Virus record (IMG/VR): IMGVR_UViG_3300008952_000006
Coordinates: 1 to 64,000 of that record
Source: a virus
Length of the DNA stretch: 64,000 nucleotides
Reading direction: 5' to 3' (one strand)
Shown here: in pieces, positions 13,598 through 61,979 of the stretch
Position numbering within the stretch: position 1 is the first letter of the stretch
Layout: each line of letters opens with the position of its first letter
Made by a program: the position numbers and the translations under genes
Notes under the pieces: model-generated
Database searches by the model: none
Seen by the model: only the letters and a program-made list of their open reading frames with translations
What the model was told of the DNA's origin: nothing

Positions 13598-13641
13598 CCT
13601 ATAAATAAACTGAACTTTTGTCAATTCTCGTAGGAGGGAAA

Positions 13642-15258
13642 ATGAACCGTGAAATCTTTAATACCCTAACCCAACAGGCCCCATTACCGGAGCCTCTACC
13701 GGAACCACTCGTGCTGAACGAGGCAGGCGGGGCGGCGTACGCTCTGTCGAACATGGAGGCTCTAGCGCAACTCGCCTGTACTGGAACCTTTAACGACACC
13801 TTCTACGAGGGTGGAGCCGAGCAGTTCACCAAGGTACTTGAGCTTTGTGAGCAAGTGCCCCCGCGCTTTATTGCGCAGTGTGCGATCTACGCACACCAGC
13901 AAGGGAAGATGAAAGATATGCCAGCGTTGTTGCTGGCTATCGTGGCGTCGAAAGACGTCACCTTGTTTCCAATGCTGTTCGCGACAGTGGTGGGAGGCAA
14001 CCCTAAAATGCTGCGGAACTTCGTCCAGATCATCCGGTCTGGGGTGTTGGGTCGTAGGTCCTTTGGGTATCGCCCCAAGAAGGAGATCCAACAGTGGTTC
14101 CAGGAACGGGACCCCCTGACTCTACTGAAATGTTCAGTGGGAGGGTCGCCAACCCTGGGGGACATCATAAAGATGACTCATCCGAAACCACTGTACCCGT
14201 CTCAGGGTGCAATGTTCGGCTACCTGTGTGGCAGGGAGTACAATATTGAACTTCTCACCCAGCCTGTGCGGGAGTACATCCTGGCCACGCAGGGAGGGGC
14301 CATCACTGATGATGTGCTGAAGCTGCCGCACAGGTTGTTGACCAACCTGGAGTTGTCTGCCCAAGACTGGCGAACTATCGCTCTGAACTCGGGCTGGACC
14401 GCTCAACGGATGAACCTTAATACGTTCGCCCGTCATGGTGTCTTTGAGGGGCCAATGGGAGACTTCACAGCCGAAAGGCTGGCCGAAAAGCTTGCTGACC
14501 CCGTTAGGGTTCGCAACAGCGGCTGTTTCCCATACCAACTTCTGCAGGCTTTTAAGTCTGTCGATGGTGGGGTGCCTCAAGTGGTGAAGGCGGCATTGGA
14601 AAATGCGCTGGACACAGCCTGCTACAATGTTCCTGAGATGGATGGGCGAATGGCAGTACTGGTTGACACCAGCTACTCCATGACCCAAGCCATTACTGGG
14701 AACCGTAGAGGGTCCACATCGGCCACAAGCTGCGTAGACGTAGCGGCCTTAGTCGCCTCAGCGTTCTTGAAGAAGAACCAGGGCAACTGTGAGGTGGTTC
14801 CGTTTGATACGCGGGTCCATGGGGCAATGCTGCAGGCCGGGGCACCAGTTATGGCGAATGCCCAAAAGCTGGCTGACCTTGGCGGGGGTGGTACAGATAT
14901 TGGATGTGCTATTGCGCATCTGAATTCTATAGGCCACACCGGAGAGCTGGTGATCCTTGTGAGTGACAACGAAAGTTGGTTCACGGGTGACCAAGCAAGC
15001 TACCGTAGCAACTACTACAACTCGGGCACCAGCCCGACCCAGGAATGGGTGGCATATAAAGCCAGAAACCCAACCGCGAAGTTGGTGTGCATTGATATCC
15101 AACCGTACTCCACCACACAGGTGGCTACGGACAAGGACGTCTTGAATATTGGAGGCTTTAGTGACTCCGTATTTGAAGCTATTAAAAGCTTCGTGGACAG
15201 CGATGGAGAAGAAAGTTGGATCAAGTTGATTGAAACTCAGGTTGGTTCTCTGGTATAA
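13642..15258 (+). CDS. TROVE-domain (Ro60/Rsr-like) RNA-binding protein
   Basis: A 538-aa protein. The N-terminal ~330 residues are a helical repeat domain of TROVE type; TLTQQAPLPEP, AYALSNMEALAQLACTGTF and MPALLLAIVASKD mark it. The C-terminal third is a vWA-like domain with the MIDAS motif DTSYS (D342) and a later GGGTDIGCAI. Ro60 proteins are rings that bind misfolded RNAs through the central hole and Y RNAs on the outer face, and act in RNA quality control with nucleases. Length and both domains fit the family. Start at 13642 (GGAGGG upstream), not the longer frame from 13618. A terminator follows the stop. Confidence 0.85.
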   Translation: MNREIFNTLTQQAPLPEPLPEPLVLNEAGGAAYALSNMEALAQLACTGTFNDTFYEGGAEQFTKVLELCEQVPPRFIAQCAIYAHQQGKMKDMPALLLAIVASKDVTLFPMLFATVVGGNPKMLRNFVQIIRSGVLGRRSFGYRPKKEIQQWFQERDPLTLLKCSVGGSPTLGDIIKMTHPKPLYPSQGAMFGYLCGREYNIELLTQPVREYILATQGGAITDDVLKLPHRLLTNLELSAQDWRTIALNSGWTAQRMNLNTFARHGVFEGPMGDFTAERLAEKLADPVRVRNSGCFPYQLLQAFKSVDGGVPQVVKAALENALDTACYNVPEMDGRMAVLVDTSYSMTQAITGNRRGSTSATSCVDVAALVASAFLKKNQGNCEVVPFDTRVHGAMLQAGAPVMANAQKLADLGGGGTDIGCAIAHLNSIGHTGELVILVSDNESWFTGDQASYRSNYYNSGTSPTQEWVAYKARNPTAKLVCIDIQPYSTTQVATDKDVLNIGGFSDSVFEAIKSFVDSDGEESWIKLIETQVGSLV

Positions 15259-42906: not shown

Positions 42907-43039
42907 ACTTCTGAAGAAATTTATCTTTACCCGATTCCATAATCTGTCCAAAAAGGGTAAGATACTTTAACCATAAAACCAGTACAATTTTATACGTAAA
43001 CCGACGACATTACGGCTATTTACCAAGGAGGCCTTGCTA

Positions 43040-45034
43040 ATGATACTAAGCCAAGTTTCTTCCACAGAAGAACGAAAAGTGAACAATTTCTCTCTGAGCA
43101 GTGCTTTCTTAGAGGACTATATAGGAACCCAGCCTGAATGGGGTCCCCTGGGCTATTTTACCTTCAAGCGTACTTACGCTAGGCCCAAAGAAGATGGCAC
43201 GACAGAGGAGTGGTGGGAGACTTGTCAGCGTGTAGTAGAAGGAATCTATAACATACAGAAGATACACTGCAAATCCCTACGATTGCCGTGGGATAATCGA
43301 AAAGCCCGAATCTCCTCCCAAGAGATGTTTCAGAGAATGTGGGAGTTCAAGTGGCTCCCTCCCGGTCGTGGCTTGTGGGCCATGGGCACTGAAATGATCT
43401 TTGAGAAAGGGGGCGCAGCGCTAAATAACTGTGCTTTCGTCTCTACCCAGAACATAGATGTAGACTTTGCGGCCCCCTTCACGTTCCTTATGGATATGTC
43501 AATGCTAGGGGTGGGTGTTGGTGGAGACACTCGAGGCGCGGGGAAGCTAAAAATCCAGGTCCCACGCATGAGTGAGAGGGAGTACGTAGTTGAGGACAGT
43601 CGAGAAGGTTGGGTAGACCTGATACGGGTTGTGCTCAACAGCTTTGTGGGCAAAGGGTATTACCCGCCAGAGCCCGACTACTCGCAAGTCAGAAAGCGGG
43701 GGGCGCTGATCAATGGATTTGGTGGTGTAGCCTCTGGGCCGCAGCCTCTCATTGATCTAGTCAAAAGTCTGACCGAGCTTCTCATGCCTGAAGACGGTGA
43801 GCCATACAAAATAACATCAGCTGTCATCGTAGATATCTTTAACCTTGTGGGCAAATGCGTTGTCGCAGGGGGTATCCGCAGGACAGCCGAAATTATGTTC
43901 GGAGACCCAGAAGACCAGGAATTCGTTACATTAAAGCAAAACGAAGAGAAGCTAAAAAGTCATAGATGGGCGTCTAATAATAGTGTGTTTGGCACAATCG
44001 GTATGGACTATACCGAAGTGGCAAAAAGCATCGCTAAGAATGGCGAGCCTGGAGTGATATGGCTCGATAATATGCAGCACTATCGACGAATGAATGGGGA
44101 GCGCAGTCGTTACGATATGAGAGTTATGGGCAGTAATCCATGCTCTGAGCAGTCTCTAGAGTCTTTTGAGCTGTGTTGCTTGGTAGAAACCTTCCCAGCG
44201 CACCACGAGTCCTTTGAGGACTACATGCGAACACTTAAGTTTGCATACCTATACGCCAAAACTGTAACGCTCATCCCGACCCATGACACGCGAACCAACG
44301 CAGTTATGATGAGGAACAGGCGTATTGGGTGTTCCCAATCGGGGATCATTCAAGCCATGCAAAAGCTTGGTCGGAGAGAATACCTCCGGTGGTCTGATGA
44401 AGGATATACCTACATCAGGGAGCTAGACAGGATCTATAGCGAATGGTTGTGTGTACCACGATCAATCAAAGTAACCTCTGTCAAACCAAGCGGAACGGTT
44501 AGTCTGTTATGTGGGGCAACACCGGGCATCCACTACCCACACTCAGAGTATTACATAAGAAATATTCGAGTAGCCAACACGTCCCCTCTTGTAAGTGCGG
44601 CGAAAGAGGCAGGGTATCCGGTGGAAGATGATACGTATGCCGAAGACACCTCTGTTGTTAGCTTTCCTGTACGGGAGAGGCATTTCATCAAAGGTAAGGC
44701 TGATGCCTCAATCTGGGAACAGTTTGCTAACGCAGCAGACCTCCAAAAGTACTGGGCAGATAATCAGGTCAGCGTAACTGTGTCTTTCCAAAACGGGGAG
44801 CACAGGGACATAAAGACTTGCCTCGAAGTATATGAGACAAGGCTGAAGTCCGTGTCTCTACTGCCGCTTCTGGACACGGACCACGGATATGTACAGGCAC
44901 CCTATATAAAGATCACTAAAGAAGAGTATGAGGAGCTTTCCACCGGCCTGTCTCCGATAAACTTTGAGTCCGCCGTGCACGAAGTCACTGATAAATTTTG
45001 TGACGGAGATAAGTGTGAGATAAAAATTAACTAG
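43040..45034 (+). CDS. nrdJ: Class II (B12-dependent) ribonucleoside-triphosphate reductase
   Basis: A 664-aa protein of the monomeric RTPR type. It shows LPPGRGLWAMG, ALNNCAFV (first redox Cys), the allosteric/active-site loop LGVGVGGDTRG, GGIRRTAEIMFGD, NPCSEQSLESFELCC with the Cys-x-Glu of the radical site, SVKPSGTVSLLCGATPG and a C-terminal CDGDKC redox pair. It reduces ribonucleoside triphosphates using adenosylcobalamin, so it works with or without oxygen and needs no NrdB or NrdG partner. AAGGAGG 8 nt upstream sets the ATG at 43040. Length is normal for the family. Confidence 0.9.
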   Translation: MILSQVSSTEERKVNNFSLSSAFLEDYIGTQPEWGPLGYFTFKRTYARPKEDGTTEEWWETCQRVVEGIYNIQKIHCKSLRLPWDNRKARISSQEMFQRMWEFKWLPPGRGLWAMGTEMIFEKGGAALNNCAFVSTQNIDVDFAAPFTFLMDMSMLGVGVGGDTRGAGKLKIQVPRMSEREYVVEDSREGWVDLIRVVLNSFVGKGYYPPEPDYSQVRKRGALINGFGGVASGPQPLIDLVKSLTELLMPEDGEPYKITSAVIVDIFNLVGKCVVAGGIRRTAEIMFGDPEDQEFVTLKQNEEKLKSHRWASNNSVFGTIGMDYTEVAKSIAKNGEPGVIWLDNMQHYRRMNGERSRYDMRVMGSNPCSEQSLESFELCCLVETFPAHHESFEDYMRTLKFAYLYAKTVTLIPTHDTRTNAVMMRNRRIGCSQSGIIQAMQKLGRREYLRWSDEGYTYIRELDRIYSEWLCVPRSIKVTSVKPSGTVSLLCGATPGIHYPHSEYYIRNIRVANTSPLVSAAKEAGYPVEDDTYAEDTSVVSFPVRERHFIKGKADASIWEQFANAADLQKYWADNQVSVTVSFQNGEHRDIKTCLEVYETRLKSVSLLPLLDTDHGYVQAPYIKITKEEYEELSTGLSPINFESAVHEVTDKFCDGDKCEIKIN

Positions 45035-51273: not shown

Positions 51274-51645
51274 ATGAAAGAATTTGAAATGGTGCCAGGG
51301 CAAGAAGAGTATTGGGCTCTTGTTTCCCAGTCACTAAAGAACCGTAAAAAAGTTAAAACAACCAGCTATGGTGGCTGGACTATTACTAGTTATGTTGGTT
51401 CTCGACCAACAACTGAGACTGGCACAAATATTACTCATATAGAGTATAGCGCTAGTGCCAAAACGGGTGACTTCGAAAGATCGCAGGAGCCCAATCTGTC
51501 CGATGACCCACGAACGATTCGTGTAGACTTTGATGATACATCTGTTGTTACGCTTTCCGCAAAGACAATGGAAGAACTAACAAACAGACTGAAAGAGATT
51601 TTCAATGGTTTTCATTGGGAACAGGAGAAAGAAAGACATGTCTAA
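51274..51645 (+). CDS. Hypothetical protein heading the conjugation cassette
   Basis: A 123-aa protein with strand-rich centre (KTTSYGGWTITSYVGSRPTT) and a helical end (TMEELTNRLKEIFNGFHWE). Not recognised. It overlaps the modifier gene by 8 nt and so is probably in the same operon. It could be a PRTRC-type accessory or unrelated. Confidence 0.55.
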   Translation: MKEFEMVPGQEEYWALVSQSLKNRKKVKTTSYGGWTITSYVGSRPTTETGTNITHIEYSASAKTGDFERSQEPNLSDDPRTIRVDFDDTSVVTLSAKTMEELTNRLKEIFNGFHWEQEKERHV

Positions 51646-52204
51646 CTACTTTGAAGAACAATTAAACGAGGCTACCACCGCACGTGATAACTTTGTCGCA
51701 GCTATGGGCGCAGACTACAGCCGAAGCAACCTGGACCGGCTCCAGGCACTACAGTCACAGGTTGACGCCGCACAGGCGCAACTGCAATCTACAACCCCGT
51801 CCAATGGGTCTAACGGATCCAATGGGTCTAACGGGTCTAACGGTATCGCCGTTAACGTTCAGCCTGCAGATAGCAGCGACGAGAACGTCGAGATGTGTGT
51901 CGTAAGCTTCATCAGGCACGGCAAAACAGACCGCTGCCGTGAGGTGCGTGCAGACGCAACAATCGGTGATATTATCCACACCCTTAATCTTGAGGAGCGA
52001 GGGTCGTGGGATGTAAGCAAACTAACGTTCAAACGGCGCGTTGGCCCAGGGCAAACGGCTGATATCACTGATCCAGCAAACACCAAGTTGGGTCCTGGTA
52101 CACACGAAATCTGGGTTGGGGACAAAGTCTCTGGTGGGCGTCGGCCAAAGCATAGCTGGGGGTTTATCCTTGAGCACGTGCTTGTCAATCACTACGTTCA
52201 GTAG
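51638..52204 (+). CDS. Ubiquitin-like modifier precursor (putative)
   Basis: A 188-aa protein. Residues 1-50 form a helix; about 55-70 is a Ser-Asn-Gly repeat linker. Residues about 86-167 read as a beta-grasp domain: MCVVSFIRHGKTDRCREV (strands 1-2), ATIGDIIHTLNLEE (helix), KLTFKRRVGPG and GTHEIWVGDKVSGG. Gly166-Gly167 follow the last strand, then a 21-residue tail. Ubiquitin-like proteins need a C-terminal Gly-Gly for E1 activation, and JAB peptidases trim tails, so cleavage after G167 would yield a mature modifier (inference). AGGAG fixes the ATG. Followed by E2-, JAB- and E1-like genes. Confidence 0.6.
   Translation: MSNYFEEQLNEATTARDNFVAAMGADYSRSNLDRLQALQSQVDAAQAQLQSTTPSNGSNGSNGSNGSNGIAVNVQPADSSDENVEMCVVSFIRHGKTDRCREVRADATIGDIIHTLNLEERGSWDVSKLTFKRRVGPGQTADITDPANTKLGPGTHEIWVGDKVSGGRRPKHSWGFILEHVLVNHYVQ
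51801..51843 (+). repeat. 9-bp tandem repeat encoding Ser-Asn-Gly linker
   Basis: About five copies of a TCCAATGGG/TCTAACGGx unit encode the repeated Ser-Asn-Gly linker in the modifier precursor. Copy number may vary between relatives by slippage. Confidence 0.75.
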
Positions 52205-52226
52205 ACCAGACTTAAGACACGACCAT

Positions 52227-52265
52227 GGCGGGGGGCTCCTTACAGGGCCTCCCGCTATTTTTTTT
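52227..52265 (+). terminator. Terminator-like hairpin between modifier and E2 genes
   Basis: GCGGG-GGGC and the later GGCC-TCCCGC arms form a GC-rich stem followed by T8, then immediately the GGAGG of the next gene. Partial termination here would give more modifier than E2. Confidence 0.65.
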
Positions 52266-52275
52266 GGAGGAAGAA

Positions 52276-53406
52276 ATGGCTGCAACCACTAACTGCTTTG
52301 TTCTAGATATTACAAAAAGCGAAGACCACATTGTTGAACAACTGCGCAGTGCGGTTGAGGCTGACTCAAAGAACGACACTGCGAGGATCCTAGAGCTTAA
52401 TGCTCGCATAAAGAAACTGGAGCCAATCTCTAAAATGAATGGCGTCAAAGTCGAAAAGCGGAGTGAAATATATGAGCGCATGCGTGCCCGTATGTCCGCA
52501 AAACATATAGAATACGAAAGAGCCCGAAACCGGGTTCGAACAGCTAGGGACAAGCACTGGGCAAGAATCACTAAGCAAGCTGAATGCGATGCCAGCATAG
52601 ACAGCCTGAAAACGGAAATATCCCGCATAAAACGAAGACTCGAGCATGCGGCAACTCTGTATGAAGGAGACGCCTTCGAAAGGCGAGCGTTGATGTTGAA
52701 ATTCGTTGCAGACCGCGTGGACACTAGCGTGCCAATTACGGTGCAAACCGTCAATGAAAACGAGCTAACAGTCAAATGGAAGACCAGCGACATCTATATA
52801 AAAGATGGTTTCGGTGGAACTCTCCCATTTAACTTTGGAAGCTTCCAGGTTCACATAACGTACAAAACCAGTTCCGAGCGGGGTAATCGTGTAGATGTAT
52901 ACTGTTACGACGCAGCTGATAACGATAAGAGGGCGGACTACTCACACCCGCACCTAAATGAACATGGGCATGCATGTCTCGGAAATCTAGCACCAATGCT
53001 TCTTAAGTTCCTAGGAGAGAAGGATATCGTCGGTGTTATAGAAAAGGTTACGGAGTTCCTTCAACACTACAATAGAGATAACCCGTATATAAAATTAGAG
53101 AACTGGTGCGAGAATAGGTGGGATAACGCCATTTGTGAGTCTGGTCGGCACATCCTAGCGGATTGCACCTGCCCAAGATGTGCTGGTTGTCGCCAAATTT
53201 TTGAAACCCCAGATATTGAAATAAGCGCCTGCGGGCACTGTCCTAGTTGCTGCATGGTCAGCCATATACACGTACCCACAATGACGGGTGTAAACGGTAC
53301 ACACTGCATCAATAGAGCAGAATACCGGCACGTTGAGTGCAACGAAACAAGCCCAGCGGGCTGTACGTATAAGCCAATTGGCGAGCCAACAAATGAAGGA
53401 GCATAG
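52276..53406 (+). CDS. E2-like ubiquitin-conjugating protein with C-terminal RING-like Cys/His cluster
   Basis: A 376-aa protein. Residues about 1-135 are coiled coil. About 145-275 is an E2/RWD-like core: FQVHITYKT strands, then HPHLNEHGHACLGN with Cys234 in the place of the conjugating Cys (HPHxxxxGxxCLG is typical of prokaryotic E2 families), and a following long helix. Residues 297-345 hold C299, C302, C305, C319, H321, C322, C325/326, H330, H332 and later Cys, spaced like a RING or other treble-clef zinc domain. An E2 joined to its own E3-like domain would be unusual. AGGAAG before ATG; 1 nt gap to the JAB gene. Confidence 0.65.
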   Translation: MAATTNCFVLDITKSEDHIVEQLRSAVEADSKNDTARILELNARIKKLEPISKMNGVKVEKRSEIYERMRARMSAKHIEYERARNRVRTARDKHWARITKQAECDASIDSLKTEISRIKRRLEHAATLYEGDAFERRALMLKFVADRVDTSVPITVQTVNENELTVKWKTSDIYIKDGFGGTLPFNFGSFQVHITYKTSSERGNRVDVYCYDAADNDKRADYSHPHLNEHGHACLGNLAPMLLKFLGEKDIVGVIEKVTEFLQHYNRDNPYIKLENWCENRWDNAICESGRHILADCTCPRCAGCRQIFETPDIEISACGHCPSCCMVSHIHVPTMTGVNGTHCINRAEYRHVECNETSPAGCTYKPIGEPTNEGA

Positions 53407-53407
53407 A

Positions 53408-54442
53408 ATGTCGAAAGTTCTAGAAAACCCAACAGTTCGTTTTACATACAAAGCGTATCAACAGATGCGCGACTTAACAAGAGACTGCCCCACTGAAGTC
53501 AGCGCGATGGGAATCATCGCAACGGACCAGCAACGAGAAGACTTGGGTATAGATGAAAGATTCTATATCCTAAGCTTTGTGGTCCCAGACCAAAGTTGTA
53601 CAGGAGTCTCGACCGTAATGAATACAGACTCTCTGAGTGAGATAGCCTTTGACCTTAGAGACAAGGGCATCCTGTCGGAGCAAGTCTGTGTCTGGTGGCA
53701 CAGCCACGTAAATATGGGAACAGGACACAGCGGCACAGACGAAAAACAGATTGAAGACTTCGACTTTGATGAGGTGTGTATATCACTCATCACCAATAAA
53801 GACGGTGATTTAAACTGTAGGGTCGATCTGTATAAGCCGATCAGATACTCCTTTGAGGAATGCGACTGGTGTGTTGATCCTGTAGATGTCTTAGAGAAGG
53901 ACTGGGCGAAAAAGCAGATCGAAGAGCATGTCTCGGTCCCAGCGCCTACCCGCTTAAATGTTGTTAAGGCACCAGTGGTAAAGAAAACCTACACCCCCTA
54001 CCAGTATGGCGGCTGGAACATGGGCGGTAACTATAGCTGGAACGGTGACTGGGAAGAGGAAGCCGAGGCTGAGAAGGATAAGTCGAAGGCGTCTTCCTAT
54101 GATGAGTACTGCAACTACGATAAAGACGTACCTGAAGTAAACTTCCCCGAGGAGCTTAAGCTGCTGGAGGAGCTACATGAAGAACACGTGGTAACCACAC
54201 AGGAGGCCATGGAGTACTACGCAAAATGGTACGCCAACGAGATAGGTACAGAGGAGCTGGAGGATGAGCTGCAAACTCTTTTCTATGAGAAAGAAATGGG
54301 CGGCGGCCAATCAGAGAAGGACGCAGATGAAGATGACGAGGACGCAGCTGGAAGAAAAATTCTAGAGTCCTTTGTCGTGCATGACATCAACGATGAAGTG
54401 GAAACGCCAAAAGTCTGTTCTGTTGTAGGAGGTTCAGAATGA
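53408..54442 (+). CDS. JAB/JAMM metallo-isopeptidase with acidic tail
   Basis: A 344-aa protein. Residues 1-150 are a JAB domain with the complete JAMM signature: Glu30 (TEVSAMG), H98-S-H100, seven residues, S108-x-x-D111. Zinc JAMM enzymes cut after the Gly-Gly of ubiquitin-like proteins, either to mature them or to remove them from targets. The C-terminal ~190 residues are not JAB: an aromatic/Gly patch (YQYGGWNMGGNYSWNGDW) and long acidic stretches, perhaps for partner binding. Its stop overlaps the E1 start (ATGA). Confidence 0.85.
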   Translation: MSKVLENPTVRFTYKAYQQMRDLTRDCPTEVSAMGIIATDQQREDLGIDERFYILSFVVPDQSCTGVSTVMNTDSLSEIAFDLRDKGILSEQVCVWWHSHVNMGTGHSGTDEKQIEDFDFDEVCISLITNKDGDLNCRVDLYKPIRYSFEECDWCVDPVDVLEKDWAKKQIEEHVSVPAPTRLNVVKAPVVKKTYTPYQYGGWNMGGNYSWNGDWEEEAEAEKDKSKASSYDEYCNYDKDVPEVNFPEELKLLEELHEEHVVTTQEAMEYYAKWYANEIGTEELEDELQTLFYEKEMGGGQSEKDADEDDEDAAGRKILESFVVHDINDEVETPKVCSVVGGSE

Positions 54443-55101
54443 TAGATACAACCCGACAGTCGGGGATTATCCCAGACAATAAGGTTCAAGAAATATCTGT
54501 CGCCATTGTCGGTGCGGGGTCCATTGGATCCCATACCGCCGAGGTGCTTTGTAAGATGGGTATTCGTAAATTACGCATCTTCGACTTCGACGACGTCGAA
54601 GGACACAACGTGGCCAACCAAGGCTATTACGTACCCGAAATTGGGTATAAGAAGTGTGAGGCTCTACGACTCCGACTTGGTTCGGGAACAGGGGTAGAAA
54701 TCATAGCCGAGAACCGGAGGTATGACGCCGGGGAAAAATTTCAAGAAGAATACGTTATCTCGGCAGTAGATAACATGTCTTCTCGAGCGGACATCTGGTC
54801 CGGTTTCCTAGCAAGCTCTGGTTGTCGCTACTTTCTAGACGCTCGTATGGGGGCAAGAAATGGTTCTGTGTTCTTCGTTGATAAGCGAAGCGTAGAATCA
54901 ATCTCCCGCTACGACCGGTCCTTGTTTCCTGACGAAGAAGCAGTTCAGTTACCGTGTACAGAGAAGAGCACCATCTTCTGTGCATATGGCCTCTCAGGTC
55001 TTATTGGTGCGCTCGTTGCCGAAAGTATTATCGGTGATAATGAGTTAAATTTCTCTGTGGATGTAGATTTCTCCAACATCCACATGTTTCGTAATACGTA
55101 A
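54439..55101 (+). CDS. ThiF/E1-like activating enzyme
   Basis: A 220-aa protein of minimal E1 type. GAGSIG (residues 25-30) is the nucleotide loop; IFDFDDVEGHNVANQ has the Asp residues and Asn-Gln that bind ATP-Mg; RMGARNG holds an Arg of the adenylation site; Cys173 (LPCTEKS) is the best candidate for the thioester Cys. Such enzymes adenylate the Gly-Gly end of beta-grasp proteins. The lack of extra domains matches ThiF proteins of prokaryotic conjugation operons, including PRTRC. Confidence 0.85.
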   Translation: MIDTTRQSGIIPDNKVQEISVAIVGAGSIGSHTAEVLCKMGIRKLRIFDFDDVEGHNVANQGYYVPEIGYKKCEALRLRLGSGTGVEIIAENRRYDAGEKFQEEYVISAVDNMSSRADIWSGFLASSGCRYFLDARMGARNGSVFFVDKRSVESISRYDRSLFPDEEAVQLPCTEKSTIFCAYGLSGLIGALVAESIIGDNELNFSVDVDFSNIHMFRNT

Positions 55102-55137
55102 ATCCTAGCTAGCTTATACACTTATAGGGAGAATCTT

Positions 55138-55896
55138 ATGGCTACCAATAACCGCGATAAAAATCGTTTCAGCTTCGGGCAAATGGGAGATCAAATGGTC
55201 TCACTGATTGACGAAGAGACGGCACCTGCCGTCATCCGTATTGAATATAATAACGTCATCTGTGAGATGGCGAAAGTCACAAGTGGTGGTCGCACGTACT
55301 ATACGGGCGTCCCAAAGACAAAGGATGGGCACAAGTGTAAATTTGGTTTTACGCTTGATTGTTCTGGGTACTTCGAAGGAAGTGCCGCAATGAACTACAT
55401 CGCAATGGGCGGGTGGCGTCGGGGGACTAAAAAGCCCACCCACGCAGAGAAGGCTAAGCGACGAACAGAGTTCGTGATGCAATTCCTCTCAAACTGCATC
55501 CACCACCGCAGCCCAGACGTCTCCTCTGAGCACGGCTTAGAGGGTCTTAAGAAGCTTGTGTCAAGCAGAACAGGGATGGAAGTGGTCACGGGGGAAATGA
55601 CCCCCGAAGACCTACGAGGATTGGCTTTGATGGCCGTCCCCTTCTATCTCGTAGAAATCTGTAAAGGGCGGGGGTTGAAGATGGTGCTGGACATACCCAA
55701 GTATGTCTCCCGTCTAGTTCAACCGCAGTACGCCAAATGTGAGCTTGGTGAGTGGGACCACGAGAGTGGTCAGGTAGCCATTACCAGTGCGCTCTCCGCA
55801 GCGCAGGCGCAGCTTATGCAGGAAGCAGGGTACCGGTTCCGAAAGGTTCAATACTCTGTTAAAGCGGCAGCTGAGCCTAAAAAGCAAGAAGAGTAG
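55138..55896 (+). CDS. Hypothetical protein of the cassette
   Basis: A 252-aa protein directly after the E1. N-terminal strands with IRIEYNNVICEMAKVTSGGR, a basic middle (RRGTKKPTHAEKAKRR) and a helical C-terminus with LSAAQAQLMQEAG. Lys-rich end. Not recognised; a scaffold, target or further cassette subunit are equally possible. Followed by the first pair of inverted repeats. Confidence 0.6.
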   Translation: MATNNRDKNRFSFGQMGDQMVSLIDEETAPAVIRIEYNNVICEMAKVTSGGRTYYTGVPKTKDGHKCKFGFTLDCSGYFEGSAAMNYIAMGGWRRGTKKPTHAEKAKRRTEFVMQFLSNCIHHRSPDVSSEHGLEGLKKLVSSRTGMEVVTGEMTPEDLRGLALMAVPFYLVEICKGRGLKMVLDIPKYVSRLVQPQYAKCELGEWDHESGQVAITSALSAAQAQLMQEAGYRFRKVQYSVKAAAEPKKQEE

Positions 55897-55961
55897 ATAT
55901 GGGTGGGGCGCGGCGTTATGCCGTGCCCCTATCCCATCTAATTTTTATTTATGAAGAGGGG

Positions 55962-56003
55962 TGACAACAAAGAGGTTGTCAAATGACAACATTGTTATTG
56001 TCG
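55962..56003. promoter_or_regulatory. Inverted-repeat pair 1 (TGACAAC-N6-GTTGTCA)
   Basis: Two 20-bp sites: 55962-55981 with perfect 7-bp arms, and 55984-56003 with a diverged right arm (ATTGTCG). Their starts are 22 bp apart, about two helical turns, as for operators or centromere sites bound side by side. Confidence 0.7.
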
Positions 56004-56108
56004 GGCAAAACGCTGTACCAACGGCTACTTACATAGAATATGTGGTATAAGGCAACTGACAACAACGTATCTGTCAGGCATAGACACTTTTCACCCAAAG
56101 GAGGGCCT

Positions 56109-57194
56109 GTGAAAGTCATTGAAATTTTAAACATTAGAGCCACTCCGCACGTAAAAGTGCGCGCTTACCCAACAACGAGTACTAACCGGTGGTCCAGAAA
56201 CGACTTTACTGATCCAGAAGATGATGAAGTCTGGGATGAAGATGACCTTACCCCTGTTGAAAGAGGTCACGTGTATCTATGGAAAGAAGACGATGATGGT
56301 TGGATACATATCTTTATGCCGTTTAAAATAATGGATGAAGAAACAGGTATACTGCTCAGAGGCTTCCAGACATTCCGCAGTACAGCTCCTTTTGTAACTG
56401 GCAGAAATCATGCCTTGGATAAGCTAACTAAAAATCCAAAATCTTGTCTCCAGAACTTTAAATTTACTAAAGAGTATTTTAATACATTTAAAAAGAAAGT
56501 TAAGGCTATAGACGGGGTAGTAGAGAAAGATGAAATTGACGTAGAAGCTCTTCTTTCCCATATCCAGGAAACAAGAGAGACTGTAAAAGCGCTTAATAGC
56601 ACAGTAGCCTCTTTAAGAACCACCTACTGTGTAGCTTCCAGTGAAGTAAAACTAGACACAAGAGAAAAACTAGAAGAGGCATTAAAACAATTCTCTATGC
56701 TAAGAGACTCTTTCAGAGAATCCGGTAAAGAGAGAGTTGTGTTAGCAAAAATTCTAAGTCGTTTAAAAGAAGAGTCTGGAAGGAAAACAGCTTACATTGA
56801 AGCGAGCGAGTGGTTTAGTGTGTTAACAAAAGAACTAAACCTCGTGCGCAGTGCAGACTTCGACAGACTAGAAAGAGAGGCGGTTCATAAACACAGGGTA
56901 GACATTGGGGACCTAGATATGACAGCTAGACCACCCACACTAATGGCTCTTGGAGTTGAATTAGATAGGTTAAAACAGTACTTCCCGTGTCTTATAAAAC
57001 TTAAAGTAGTCAACACTCAAAACACCGAAGCAGTCTACCTGGACTTACCAGGGATAAAAATATCCCTCTTAAGCGATGGTGCTGTAAAAGTAGAAGGTGA
57101 CCCAGCAGTACTTAAACCATTCGTAGAAGGCTCATCCGCAGTTCAGGCTGCGGGGAGGCGTAGACGTACGATCTACACAGAAGATGAAAACTAG
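56109..57194 (+). CDS. Hypothetical coiled-coil protein between inverted-repeat pairs
   Basis: A 361-aa protein. GTG at 56109 is chosen because AAAGGAGG lies 4-5 nt upstream; the ATG at 56040 has no site. The N-terminal ~110 residues are an alpha/beta domain with acidic loop (DPEDDEVWDEDDLTPVERG); about 125-270 is coiled coil (for example LLSHIQETRETVKALNSTVA). The gene is clearly AT-richer than its neighbours, suggesting separate origin. Flanking sites make it a candidate partner of the ParB-like protein, or a ParA-less partition factor. Confidence 0.6.
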   Translation: MKVIEILNIRATPHVKVRAYPTTSTNRWSRNDFTDPEDDEVWDEDDLTPVERGHVYLWKEDDDGWIHIFMPFKIMDEETGILLRGFQTFRSTAPFVTGRNHALDKLTKNPKSCLQNFKFTKEYFNTFKKKVKAIDGVVEKDEIDVEALLSHIQETRETVKALNSTVASLRTTYCVASSEVKLDTREKLEEALKQFSMLRDSFRESGKERVVLAKILSRLKEESGRKTAYIEASEWFSVLTKELNLVRSADFDRLEREAVHKHRVDIGDLDMTARPPTLMALGVELDRLKQYFPCLIKLKVVNTQNTEAVYLDLPGIKISLLSDGAVKVEGDPAVLKPFVEGSSAVQAAGRRRRTIYTEDEN

Positions 57195-57201
57195 GGAGGG
57201 G

Positions 57202-57221
57202 TGACAGAATGAAAGTTGTCA
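57202..57221. promoter_or_regulatory. Inverted repeat 3
   Basis: TGACAGA-ATGAAA-GTTGTCA, left arm 5 of 7 bases matching, right arm perfect. It begins 8 nt after the stop of the coiled-coil gene. Confidence 0.65.
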
Positions 57222-57274
57222 CTCACCGTTATTCGGTAGAATCCCGTAAACAAAGGTAATACCTAGGTTTTTGG

Positions 57275-57315
57275 TGACAACAATGAAGTTGTCATCGACA
57301 AGGTGAAAGTTGTCA
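57275..57315. promoter_or_regulatory. Inverted-repeat pair 4-5
   Basis: Site 4, 57275-57294, perfect TGACAAC-AATGAA-GTTGTCA. Site 5, 57296-57315, CGACAAG-GTGAAA-GTTGTCA. Starts are 21 bp apart, as in the first pair. They precede the ParB-like gene by about 155 bp. Confidence 0.7.
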
Positions 57316-57470
57316 CCCTCTAGGTACTTGTGGCTTGCATATGGATGAAGTTATTACCAATAATGTTAAATAGAATTTCTATTTTACCAACACGCTCAGC
57401 TACTACGACAGACGAATTGTTAGTAGCTTTATCTGGCAGCAACACAGTGAAACATGCCAAAGGAGAAACT

Positions 57471-58388
57471 ATGGCGCAAGACCAACTAAAACTTAAGAAG
57501 TTTAAGTTTGAAGACATCGAACTCAACGTTGATGGCTTCCAGAATTGTAGAAAGGCAGACATATATGATGTCAAAGAATTAAAGGAGTCCATCAAGCGAG
57601 AAGGGCTTCTAAATCCGCCAATCGTGCGGGTTTATAAAGATGATGACGGAGAGCAAAGAATTGTTCTTTTAGCGGGGTATCGAAGATACCAAGCTATTTC
57701 AGAGGAACGAAACACTCGAAAAGAGGCTGGGGAGAGCACTGCTAAGTTTTACGACATGATTCAGTGCACTGTCTTCTCAGGGTCTTTGGACGAAGCTCTT
57801 GCATTAAACTTGAGTGAGAATATGCAAAGGCAGAAGCTCAATCATGCGGACCAATGCGAAGCCATTGCGAAGCTTGTGGAGCGTGTTGGTAACCAAGAAC
57901 AGGTTTCCGGTATGCTTAGCATCAGCCAGCCTCAAGTAAGTGTTATGACTTCCACCTACCTTGGTCTATGCAAGATGGGTTTAGAGGCGCTCCGACACGG
58001 AAATATCCGCCTGAACCTAGCCAAGAGATTGGCGAGGTACTTAAAAGAAGATGGCTCTCCTGATGTTAAAAAGCAGGAAGAAATCCTCGAAGAGATATTA
58101 ACCGCAAAAGACGGCTCCCTGCCTGAAGATGCTCAACGTAAACGGGCTAAGACATATAGGAGCAAGCGCGAAGTGGAAGAACTGCGTGCCTTGTTAGCGA
58201 ACGCAGAGGGCGATGAAGTTGACGCAGACTACCGTAAAGTATCCATGCAGTGGTGCAAATGGTATTTCTGCGAGCTAAACACCGACACGATGCTTTACCG
58301 AGTGGAGGAGGACACTGTAGAGCTTATCGAAGAAGAAGCGCCAAAGCCCAAGAAAAAGAAGCGTAAGAAAATTCGCGTGGGTGAATAA
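57471..58388 (+). CDS. ParB-family protein
   Basis: A 305-aa protein. The N-terminal domain has DVKELKESIKREGLLNPPIV and GYRRYQA (residues 69-75, box II of the ParB CTP-binding fold), ALALNLSENMQRQKLN (box III), then an HTH (QVSGMLSISQPQVSV). ParB proteins load on DNA at palindromic sites and slide as CTP-dependent clamps in chromosome or plasmid partition. The Lys-rich end (KKKKRKKIRVGE) may add DNA binding. The start at 57471 has AGGAGA; the frame from 57330 overlaps nothing useful. No ParA-type ATPase was seen, but a ParB in a ThiF/JAB cluster is the hallmark of PRTRC cassettes. Confidence 0.85.
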   Translation: MAQDQLKLKKFKFEDIELNVDGFQNCRKADIYDVKELKESIKREGLLNPPIVRVYKDDDGEQRIVLLAGYRRYQAISEERNTRKEAGESTAKFYDMIQCTVFSGSLDEALALNLSENMQRQKLNHADQCEAIAKLVERVGNQEQVSGMLSISQPQVSVMTSTYLGLCKMGLEALRHGNIRLNLAKRLARYLKEDGSPDVKKQEEILEEILTAKDGSLPEDAQRKRAKTYRSKREVEELRALLANAEGDEVDADYRKVSMQWCKWYFCELNTDTMLYRVEEDTVELIEEEAPKPKKKKRKKIRVGE

Positions 58389-60965: not shown

Positions 60966-61381
60966 CTGGCGCTAGAAAAAATAGTCTATTTGTATTAGAC
61001 GATGGCGAGACATATGCTGGCGAAGGTCATGAAATACGTGTAACAGACGAGGAGCTTGCGCGGATTGTAAACGGCGAGAAGATCTACGAAGTTATCCCAG
61101 ATTGGGATGACCCGAATCGGGATGTTCCAGAAGGCGTGCCTACCGAGGCTGCTTTGGAGCCGCGCAGCTCTTTCGAGTATGTCCTAAACAACGATCACGT
61201 AAACAATCGTGTTTGGATAACCGTAAACGAGCCAGATGGCTCAGGTAAAGCCGACATCGGTATCCTGATTAACCATGATGGTGTCTCTATAGATGTTTAC
61301 CCTTTTCAGGCTGACGAAGCCGTGCTCCAACCCTACGTTCTATGGGGGGATATTAGAGAGGCAGAGAAAGATGAAGATTAA
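60962..61381 (+). CDS. Conserved hypothetical phage protein
   Basis: A 139-aa acidic protein. The C-terminal part (NNRVWITVNEPDGSG, GILINHDGVSIDVYP) matches short conserved phage and plasmid proteins; the N-terminal half is less typical. ATG overlaps the previous stop. Unknown function, probably an insertion into the cassette. Confidence 0.6.
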   Translation: MTGARKNSLFVLDDGETYAGEGHEIRVTDEELARIVNGEKIYEVIPDWDDPNRDVPEGVPTEAALEPRSSFEYVLNNDHVNNRVWITVNEPDGSGKADIGILINHDGVSIDVYPFQADEAVLQPYVLWGDIREAEKDED

Positions 61382-61979
61382 CGTCGCTGCGCTCGCGCAA
61401 GACAGTCTTGTGAATGGTCCTGGACGTCGTAATGTTTTACACGTCCAGGGGTGCTCTGTGGGCTGCCCTGGTTGCTTTAACAAACATACCTGGCCCAAGG
61501 CCGGGGGAACGGAGACAAGCGCTGAGGAGGTCGTCAGGCTGCTCCTGGAGTGGGAACCAGATGGTGTTACCATCTCTGGCGGAGAACCCATGGAGCAGTG
61601 GGAATCCTTGCGCCATATTCTAAAAGAAGTTCATAAAAGAAAGCCAGCAATAGATGTTATAATTTTTACAGGCTGGTCTAAAAACAGACTAAAAAAAGAA
61701 GGACGCCTAGAAGAAATGTCCAAGCCGTTCTACCAAAGTAAAACGCTTGTAAACATGGTTATCGCGGGGCCCTATGTTGAAGAACTTGCATGTGTGAAAC
61801 CACTAATTTCTTCGTCTAATCAAGAAATCATATACATAAACCCTGATTGTGAGAGGGTAGATTTATCTAAGCTCCCACGTGTAGCGGTAGACTGTGGCCC
61901 AAGTGGTTTCGTTATTACAGGTCTCCCAGACAAGGAAACACTAGAAGCGCTAACCAGCCCTGAGGGAGGTGAACGATGA
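61371..61979 (+). CDS. NrdG-like radical SAM protein
   Basis: A 202-aa protein. C28-x3-C32-x2-C35 in VQGCSVGCPGCFN binds the 4Fe-4S cluster; GVTISGGEPM is the SAM-binding GGE motif. Length and motifs fit the short activating-enzyme type (NrdG). The RNR of this genome is class II and needs no activase, and no NrdD is seen, so this protein probably serves the A AA/DUF2997/DUF1257 module instead. ATG at 61371 overlaps the previous gene. Confidence 0.75.
   Translation: MKINVAALAQDSLVNGPGRRNVLHVQGCSVGCPGCFNKHTWPKAGGTETSAEEVVRLLLEWEPDGVTISGGEPMEQWESLRHILKEVHKRKPAIDVIIFTGWSKNRLKKEGRLEEMSKPFYQSKTLVNMVIAGPYVEELACVKPLISSSNQEIIYINPDCERVDLSKLPRVAVDCGPSGFVITGLPDKETLEALTSPEGGER

What the first reader, a model, noticed from the sequence alone, without database searches (positions are those of the whole stretch)
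51638..58388. Phage-encoded PRTRC-like ubiquitin-type conjugation cassette
A modifier candidate with Gly-Gly, an E2-like protein, an intact JAMM peptidase, a ThiF-type E1, one unknown gene, then a coiled-coil gene and a ParB-family gene are consecutive and mostly overlapping. ParB next to ThiF, JAB and E2-like genes is the definition of PRTRC cassettes, which are known from plasmids and integrated elements but whose biochemistry is little studied. Finding all enzyme classes together on a phage-like genome suggests a working modification system that could mark virion, host or ParB-bound DNA proteins.
Basis: partly seen in the sequence, partly recalled or inferred. Interest (0 to 1): 0.92.

Follow-up and report, generated by a model that had tools for sequence, protein, structure and literature searches.

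The report
Phage-encoded ubiquitin-like protein tagging cassette
This large bacterial virus carries what looks like a complete miniature version of the cell's ubiquitin tagging machinery (tag, two loading enzymes and a tag-trimming protease), and related blocks turn up in many other phages, probably including crAss-like gut phages, so protein tagging may be a widespread but overlooked phage tool.

Summary
At 51638-55101 of a 173-kb tailed-phage genome lie, in order, a pro-modifier (beta-grasp, Gly-Gly plus a 21-residue tail), an E2, a JAMM peptidase with all its ligands, and an E1. Profiles built from relatives match SUMO2 (5e-10), UBE2L3 with the active-site motif in register (1.6e-3), CSN5 (1.3e-3) and UBA5 (1.6e-18). 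The block recurs in the same order in many phages and some bacterial elements; crAss-like and Flavobacterium phages have JAMM-E1 preceded by probable E2 and modifier genes. Xanthomonas/Erwinia phages have a version without JAMM whose modifier already ends in Gly-Gly. A strong hairpin follows the modifier gene in 15 of 21 loci (15 of 87 control genes).

The PRTRC label is only partly right. A true PRTRC locus scores 4e-21 to 5e-74 on PRTRC models; the window scores none for A, B or C. Its E2 has the classical HPx(n)C motif that PRTRC E2s lack, and ParB is linked only in the window's own clade and one further phage.

Best reading: a phage Ubl-conjugation pathway, matured by JAMM, with unknown, possibly replication-related, targets. 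Conjugation itself is inferred, not shown. No description was found in the papers held.

The parts
51638..52204 (+). Pro-modifier (Ubl): low-complexity N-terminus, beta-grasp domain about residues 87-165, Gly166-Gly167, then a 21-residue tail to be removed
   Evidence: Profile of 10 relatives (A4) hits SUMO2 5.1e-10, SAMP2 2e-7, MoaD-type proteins; GG aligned at the same place in relatives, followed by 1-2 residues in the closest ones
52225..52258 (+). Terminator-like hairpin (14 bp, 9 GC) followed by T8, between modifier and E2 genes; probable partial terminator giving an excess of modifier
   Evidence: fold z -3.4; position conserved in 15 of 21 loci vs 15 of 87 control gene ends
52276..53406 (+). 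E2-like conjugating enzyme: coiled coil 16-128, UBC-like core about 133-275, motif HPH(224-226)...Cys234, Cys-rich C-terminus
   Evidence: Profile A3: all 47 PDB hits are E2s; A10: UBE2L3 1.6e-3 with HPx(n)C in register; AF2 core pLDDT 78, best Foldseek hits E2s, E 0.015, TM about 0.4; strong Shine-Dalgarno
53125..53403 (+). Cys-rich putative zinc-binding C-terminal region of the E2 (possible built-in E3-like part)
   Evidence: 12 Cys, 4 CxxC in 93 aa; Cys-rich tails in most phage E2s of the family; no Pfam match, low pLDDT: fold not shown
53408..54442 (+). JAMM metalloprotease (pro-modifier processing and/or deconjugation)
   Evidence: E30/H98/H100/S108/D111 invariant in six sequences of divergent phages; profile hits CSN5 1.3e-3, Rpn11, JAMM1
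54439..55101 (+). E1 (ThiF/UBA-type activating enzyme), GAGSIGS loop, D49, D51, K72, candidate catalytic Cys173
   Evidence: Pfam ThiF 1.8e-17; profile hits UBA5 1.6e-18; C173 invariant in the alignment
55138..55896 (+). Unknown 252-aa protein, conserved only in the window's clade
   Evidence: No family match; 38-55% identity in relatives; found only in the close clade
56040..57194 (+). Coiled-coil protein of the neighbouring ParB/AAA/RecA module (probably not part of the cassette)
57471..58388 (+). ParB-family protein (neighbour, probably not part of the cassette)
   Evidence: ParB_N 1.4e-6; restricted to the window clade and L024
58389..59945 (+). AAA+ ATPase (PAN/CDC48/FtsH-type AAA domain, phrog_8638), possible segregase partner
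   Evidence: AAA 6e-29, phrog_8638 1.6e-133; family also in 127 INPHARED phages, but AAA genes recur near cassettes in L032, L116, L123, L129

Best explanation
A self-contained, phage-encoded ubiquitin-like conjugation pathway. The modifier is made as a precursor, probably in excess over the enzymes because a terminator-like hairpin follows its gene. The JAMM peptidase trims the residues after Gly-Gly. The E1 adenylates the exposed Gly and takes it on Cys173; the E2 takes it over on Cys234 and passes it to an amine on a target, possibly helped by its own Cys-rich C-terminus acting as an E3. The JAMM may also remove the tag. Targets are most likely proteins of the phage replication/DNA-metabolism apparatus or host proteins met there, because the cassette sits among replication and repair genes in unrelated phages; an AAA+ ATPase may extract tagged proteins. 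Shown here: presence, order, motifs, homology, purifying selection. Inferred: catalysis, maturation, targets. Probability that it conjugates the modifier to proteins: about 0.8; that the main targets are replication/DNA-associated: about 0.35.
For: Four components each match the right structural family by profile. Order Ubl-E2-JAMM-E1 recurs in phages with only 25-38% E1 identity and in bacterial contigs, all across a strongly supported branch from ThiF/MoeB controls. JAMM loci mostly encode modifiers with residues after the Gly (GGI, GGF, GGE, GGQ, GGAR, GGRQ, window 21 aa), whereas PhiXhv-12 and the L067 phage have no JAMM match anywhere in their records and a modifier ending exactly in GG. 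Hairpin after the modifier gene in 15/21 loci vs 15/87 controls, p = 4e-6. Active-site residues invariant. Neighbouring genes in several phages are primase, ligase, topoisomerase, UDG, RecA. The same chemistry, including JAMM removal of a 9-residue pro-peptide, has been reconstituted for the Caldiarchaeum system (PMC5654768).
Against: No biochemistry. The E2 fold match is moderate (best E 1.6e-3 by profile; Foldseek E 0.015, TM about 0.4). The zinc-finger/E3 idea has no fold support. The JAMM-tail correlation rests on one supported independent contrast, and five bacterial JAMM loci have modifiers ending at Gly. In crAss-like phages the E2 and modifier assignments are weak. The window's 21-aa tail is not shared by its closest relative.
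Confidence: 0.78

Rival explanations
1. A sulfur-carrier system: the modifier is thiocarboxylated by the E1 and donates sulfur (ThiS/MoaD/Urm1/TtuB-like), for example for tRNA or nucleotide thiolation, with the JAMM freeing its C-terminus.
For: E1 is ThiF-like; the modifier profile also matches MoaD-type and TtuB proteins; ThiF/MoeB loci appear among the E1 relatives.
Against: Sulfur carriers need no E2. An E2 with HPx(n)Cys is present and syntenic, and the cassette E1s separate from ThiF/MoeB controls with strong support. No tRNA genes in the window.
Confidence: 0.07
2. A counter-defence device: phage modifier, E2 and JAMM act as decoys or deconjugases against host Bil or CBASS Cap2/Cap3 ubiquitin-like immunity.
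For: Bacteria conjugate Ubls onto phages (Bil), and Borg elements carry many JAMM proteins thought to deconjugate (PMC12660748). A JAMM alone could do this.
Against: A full E1-E2-Ubl chain with conserved catalytic residues is more than a decoy needs; some phages keep Ubl, E2 and E1 and lack JAMM entirely. The E1 resembles Cap2-type E1-E2 models only over its nucleotide-binding core.
Confidence: 0.13
3. A phage-borne PRTRC cassette serving genome partition with ParB.
For: E1 second-best NCBIfam model is PRTRC_ThiF; same relative order Ubl-E2-JAB-E1 in a plasmid PRTRC locus; ParB nearby.
Against: PRTRC A, B, C models do not match (positive control); classical HPH E2 motif; ParB missing from most cassettes and the L027 phage genome.
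Confidence: 0.04
4. A degenerate or repurposed remnant (for example a scaffold), no longer catalytic.
For: Divergent sequences; low-complexity N-terminus of the modifier; the window's modifier tail differs from relatives.
Against: Invariant catalytic residues over many lineages and dN/dS about 0.1.
Confidence: 0.05

Closest known systems
Caldiarchaeum subterraneum ubiquitin operon (Ub, E1, E2, small RING protein, Rpn11/JAMM; PMC5654768)
   Same: Pro-ubiquitin with residues after Gly-Gly removed by a JAMM enzyme; separate E1 and E2 genes
   Different: Archaeal; E1 with a distinct catalytic-cysteine domain (PMC11354881); separate RING gene; here a 220-aa E1, an E2 with its own coiled coil and Cys-rich tail, in phages
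PRTRC cassettes of plasmids (TIGR03734-TIGR03738; they resemble type 6d operons of Iyer et al. 2006, PMC1779556)
   Same: Relative order Ubl-E2-JAB-E1; E1 in the same broad family; mobile elements
   Different: PRTRC A/B/C models do not match; E2 lacks the His before Cys; extra genes and ParB as members; JAB with an N-terminal domain
Bil (BilABCD, ISG15-like) anti-phage system (PMC11354881)
   Same: Ubl, E2, JAMM and E1 in one operon; JAMM frees the Ubl C-terminus
   Different: Tandem Ubl, two-domain E1 with a Cys domain, CEHH-type E2 active site, a host defence; here single Ubl, minimal E1, HPx(n)C E2, in phages
CBASS Cap2/Cap3 and Bub pathways (PMC13373217 for Bub)
   Same: E1, E2 and JAB-type chemistry in bacteria
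   Different: Cap2 fuses E2 and E1; PADLOC E1-E2 models match only the window's E1 core (2e-12); the E2 is a separate gene here

Membership tests
PRTRC system | Matches to PRTRC A (JAB), B (E2) and C (Ubl) models | tested here: not met
   No hit at E up to 1; positive-control locus L193 hits at 3e-40, 3e-32, 4e-21
PRTRC system | PRTRC ThiF E1 above the curated cut-off | tested here: not met
   57.7 bits vs cut-off 144.75; control 248.7
PRTRC system | PRTRC ParB as a stable member | tested here: not met
   42.6 bits vs 278.6; ParB only in the window clade and L024; none in the whole L027 phage record
PRTRC system | E2 without the His before the catalytic Cys | tested here: not met
   Window HPHLNEHGHACLG; PRTRC B in L193/L194 PPFFN.YEDCRVCLG (PMC1779556)
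Ubl-conjugation systems in general (Ubl, E1, E2, JAMM) | Beta-grasp modifier with a Gly-ended C-terminus after processing | tested here: met
   Profile to SUMO2 5e-10, SAMP2 2e-7; Gly conserved; fold by profile, not by model
Ubl-conjugation systems in general (Ubl, E1, E2, JAMM) | E1 with nucleotide loop and catalytic Cys | tested here: met
   the role of C173 is inferred from conservation
Ubl-conjugation systems in general (Ubl, E1, E2, JAMM) | E2 of UBC fold with His and Cys active site | tested here: met
   profile; model; strength moderate
Ubl-conjugation systems in general (Ubl, E1, E2, JAMM) | JAMM metal ligands intact | tested here: met
Ubl-conjugation systems in general (Ubl, E1, E2, JAMM) | Actual covalent conjugation to proteins | not testable with these tools
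   Needs biochemistry or mass spectrometry
Bil (BilABCD) | Tandem-Ubl BilA, two-domain BilD E1, CEHH E2 | tested here: not met
   One Ubl domain, 220-aa E1, no E/H/H after Cys234 in the spacing given in PMC11354881 (read from the sequence)
RING-type E3 in the E2 C-terminus | Match to RING or another treble-clef fold | tested here: inconclusive
   Cys-rich with CxxC motifs but only sub-threshold Pfam hits in relatives, none for the window, no PDB match for L029

The most novel reading that the evidence does not exclude
A previously unrecognised class of ubiquitin-like conjugation system that is a standing part of many large tailed phages and probably of crAss-like gut phages: pro-modifier, E2 with a built-in zinc-binding ligase-like tail, JAMM maturase and minimal E1, acting on proteins of phage replication or host takeover, with an AAA+ unfoldase handling the tagged proteins.
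Probability: 0.5. Interest if true: 0.9.

Novelty: new variant of a known kind. Interest (0 to 1): 0.8.

Why it matters
Ubl conjugation in prokaryotes is known from archaea and from bacterial systems, several of them used against phages. Here the phages themselves carry a complete set, in lineages from uncultured environmental phages to, probably, cultured crAss-like phages of Bacteroides intestinalis, where the E1 is annotated as 'thiamine biosynthesis protein'. If it works, phages tag proteins during infection, the targets can be read out directly by mass spectrometry in culturable systems, and the evolution of ubiquitin signalling gains a large viral reservoir. It also makes testable whether the JAMM enzyme is mainly a modifier maturase or a deconjugase.

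Tried and rejected
Proteasome link: no proteasome-fold peptidase in the window phage or five relatives, so a phage-encoded proteasome was dropped.

AAA+ gene as a dedicated cassette member: its family is found in 127 INPHARED phages, so it is only a possible partner.

Foldseek with the full E2 model was swamped by the coiled coil; repeated with the core alone.

A broad E2 alignment could not seed a collection scan; the genome scan needed a closer E1 alignment.

JAMM-tail correlation as statistics: only one supported independent contrast, so it is used as illustration only.

RING identity of the E2 tail: not supported.

Literature: searches for crAss with ThiF or ubiquitin, phage E1/E2/JAB, PRTRC and jumbo phages found no description of this cassette; a 2021 jumbo-phage survey has no mention of E2-like, JAB, ThiF or Ubl (PMC7824862). 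Subscription journals and preprints were not searchable.
Full report
WHAT IS THERE. The window is the first 64 kb of a 173,034-bp virus record. It is a tailed phage: terminase large subunit (2e-71), DNA polymerase (6e-135), DnaB-like helicase and a ribonucleotide reductase (2.5e-129) are encoded. At 51638-55101, on one strand, lie a modifier candidate, an E2-like gene, a JAMM gene and an E1 gene, followed by an unknown gene, a coiled-coil gene, ParB, an AAA+ ATPase and a RecA/UvsX-like recombinase.

THE MODIFIER. The 188-aa protein has a low-complexity N-terminus, a beta-grasp-like domain, Gly166-Gly167 and a 21-residue tail. Relatives end ...AGGRQ...AGGI...AGGF...EGGE...KGGQ. A profile of ten of them hits SUMO2 at 5.1e-10, SAMP2 at 2e-7 and MoaD-type proteins.

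THE E2. The protein at 52276-53406 has no Pfam match by itself, but its core carries the pattern G-x-F ... HPH-x(5-7)-C-L-G ... L..YN...PY. A profile of 13 cores gave 47 PDB hits below E 10, every one a ubiquitin-conjugating enzyme; a profile of 21 cores hit UBE2L3 at 1.6e-3 with the profile's HPHisengdpCl aligned on HPNIDEKGQVCL. AlphaFold2 of the core (pLDDT 78, pTM 0.74) has best Foldseek matches to Rad6/Ubc2-type E2s, though with modest scores (E 0.015, TM about 0.4). The N-terminus is a long coiled coil. The C-terminus is Cys-rich (12 Cys in 93 aa), as in most phage members of the family and few of the bacterial ones; zinc binding and an E3-like role are guesses, as no fold match was found.

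THE JAMM AND THE E1. The JAMM keeps E30, H98-S-H100, S108 and D111 in all six sequences aligned, from divergent phages, and its profile hits CSN5, Rpn11 and JAMM1. The E1 keeps the nucleotide loop, D49/D51, K72 and C173; its profile hits UBA5 at 1.6e-18. dN/dS for the E1 is about 0.1 against relatives, so the protein is under selection.

DISTRIBUTION. E1 profiles found 143 viral contigs (80 kept) and 85 bacterial contigs (the weaker ones are ordinary ThiF/MoeB loci). Modifier, E2, JAMM and E1 follow one another in that order in most loci where all can be recognised; in some bacterial loci the modifier lies after the E1. Among sequenced phages, the E1 occurs in Xanthomonas PhiXhv-12/15/16, Erwinia Ep032, Flavobacterium psychrophilum phages and crAss-like phages, including 24 PhiCrAssBcn isolates on Bacteroides intestinalis, usually annotated as a thiamine biosynthesis protein. 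In the crAss-like and Flavobacterium group JAMM and E1 are clear; the gene before JAMM has a conserved HSH...CLG motif and aligns in register with the E2 (P 3e-4), and the gene before that carries an invariant Ser-Gly after a Ubl-like stretch, but neither reaches a PDB match, so these two assignments are tentative. In the E1 tree the cassette E1s lie across a 98% branch from ThiF/MoeB controls, and phage and bacterial members are interleaved, with at least three switches forced by well supported branches. Several bacterial loci lie beside mobile-element genes.

MATURATION. In JAMM loci the modifier nearly always continues past the terminal Gly. PhiXhv-12 (complete, 227,648 bp) and the L067 phage (238,018 bp) have Ubl, E2 and E1 but no JAMM match anywhere, and their modifiers stop exactly at Gly-Gly, as do the ThiS/MoaD-type controls. 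Exceptions exist: five bacterial JAMM loci end at Gly, and the phage contrast is a single clade. This fits a JAMM whose main task is to open the modifier, as shown for Caldiarchaeum pro-ubiquitin (PMC5654768), but does not prove it.

A HAIRPIN AFTER THE MODIFIER GENE. A 14-bp GC-rich hairpin with a T-run lies between modifier and E2 at 52225-52258. A hairpin better than at least 99 of 100 shuffles follows the modifier gene in 15 of 21 loci where the E2 comes next, against 15 of 87 other genes followed by a gap in the same loci (p = 4e-6); the stems differ in sequence. The simplest reading is a partial terminator that makes more modifier than enzyme. The loci are not all independent (four of the 15 are one clade).

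PRTRC. The order resembles plasmid PRTRC cassettes, but the family tests fail: no match to PRTRC A, B or C, and ThiF and ParB far below the cut-offs, while a real PRTRC locus scores strongly. PRTRC-type E2s lack the His before Cys (PMC1779556). ParB, the coiled-coil gene and the unknown gene follow the cassette only in the window's clade (and partly L024), and the L027 phage has no ParB. The system works like PRTRC, Bil or the Caldiarchaeum pathway in its predicted chemistry, but is a member of none of them by the features tested.

FUNCTION. The cassette lies among replication and repair genes in the window (RecA), in crAss-like phages (primase, UDG), in Flavobacterium phages (primase, UDG, exonuclease) and in PhiXhv-12 (ligase, topoisomerase). 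This suggests that targets belong to DNA metabolism or are host proteins met there. No proteasome is encoded. AAA+ ATPases of different kinds recur beside cassettes, including ClpB-like unfoldases directly after the E1 in Melainabacteria/Cyanobacteria contigs, which hints at unfolding of tagged proteins. This remains a hypothesis.

NOVELTY. No paper in the held library describes it; unheld literature could. Ubl conjugation cassettes in prokaryotes are a known kind; a phage-borne, widespread version with this E2 and this variation in maturation is a new variant.

Noticed in passing
L123:7763-10102, L126:3721-6276, L129:7883-10324, L132:7750-10023: In Melainabacteria/Cyanobacteria cassettes the E1 is followed directly by a ClpB/ClpC-like double-AAA unfoldase (AAA_2 1e-66 to 1e-72 in the three scanned), suggesting a Ubl-unfoldase link in bacteria.
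   Followed up: partly
window 52225-52258 and the modifier-E2 gap of many loci: Position-conserved, sequence-unrelated terminator-like hairpins after the modifier gene.
   Followed up: yes
L014-L016; INPHARED crAss-like phages: E1 of crAss-like and Flavobacterium phages is annotated 'thiamine biosynthesis protein ThiF'; probably a misannotation of a Ubl-activating enzyme.
   Followed up: partly
window 51638-52204, 3' end: The window's modifier has a 21-aa tail after GG while its closest relative stops two residues after GG.
   Followed up: no
window 13618-15258: Large RNA-binding protein, phrog_850 1.9e-26, possibly a Ro60/TROVE-like protein (name from memory, not tested).
   Followed up: no
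window 43034-45034 and 61293-61979: Ribonucleotide reductase (phrog_367 2.5e-129) and, downstream of the cassette, a radical-SAM activase-like gene (CxxGCxxC-type motif read from sequence); may point to an anaerobic host.
   Followed up: no
L183:8339-8815: A different bacterial locus with a classical E2-like domain (WHPNVFTAGTICLG) near a ThiF-type E1 and a JAMM-like gene.
   Followed up: no
L028:5921-7927: A phage locus in which the E1 is carried by a 668-aa protein with an HPH-containing N-terminal part, next to a 67-aa modifier ending AGGR and a JAMM.
   Followed up: no
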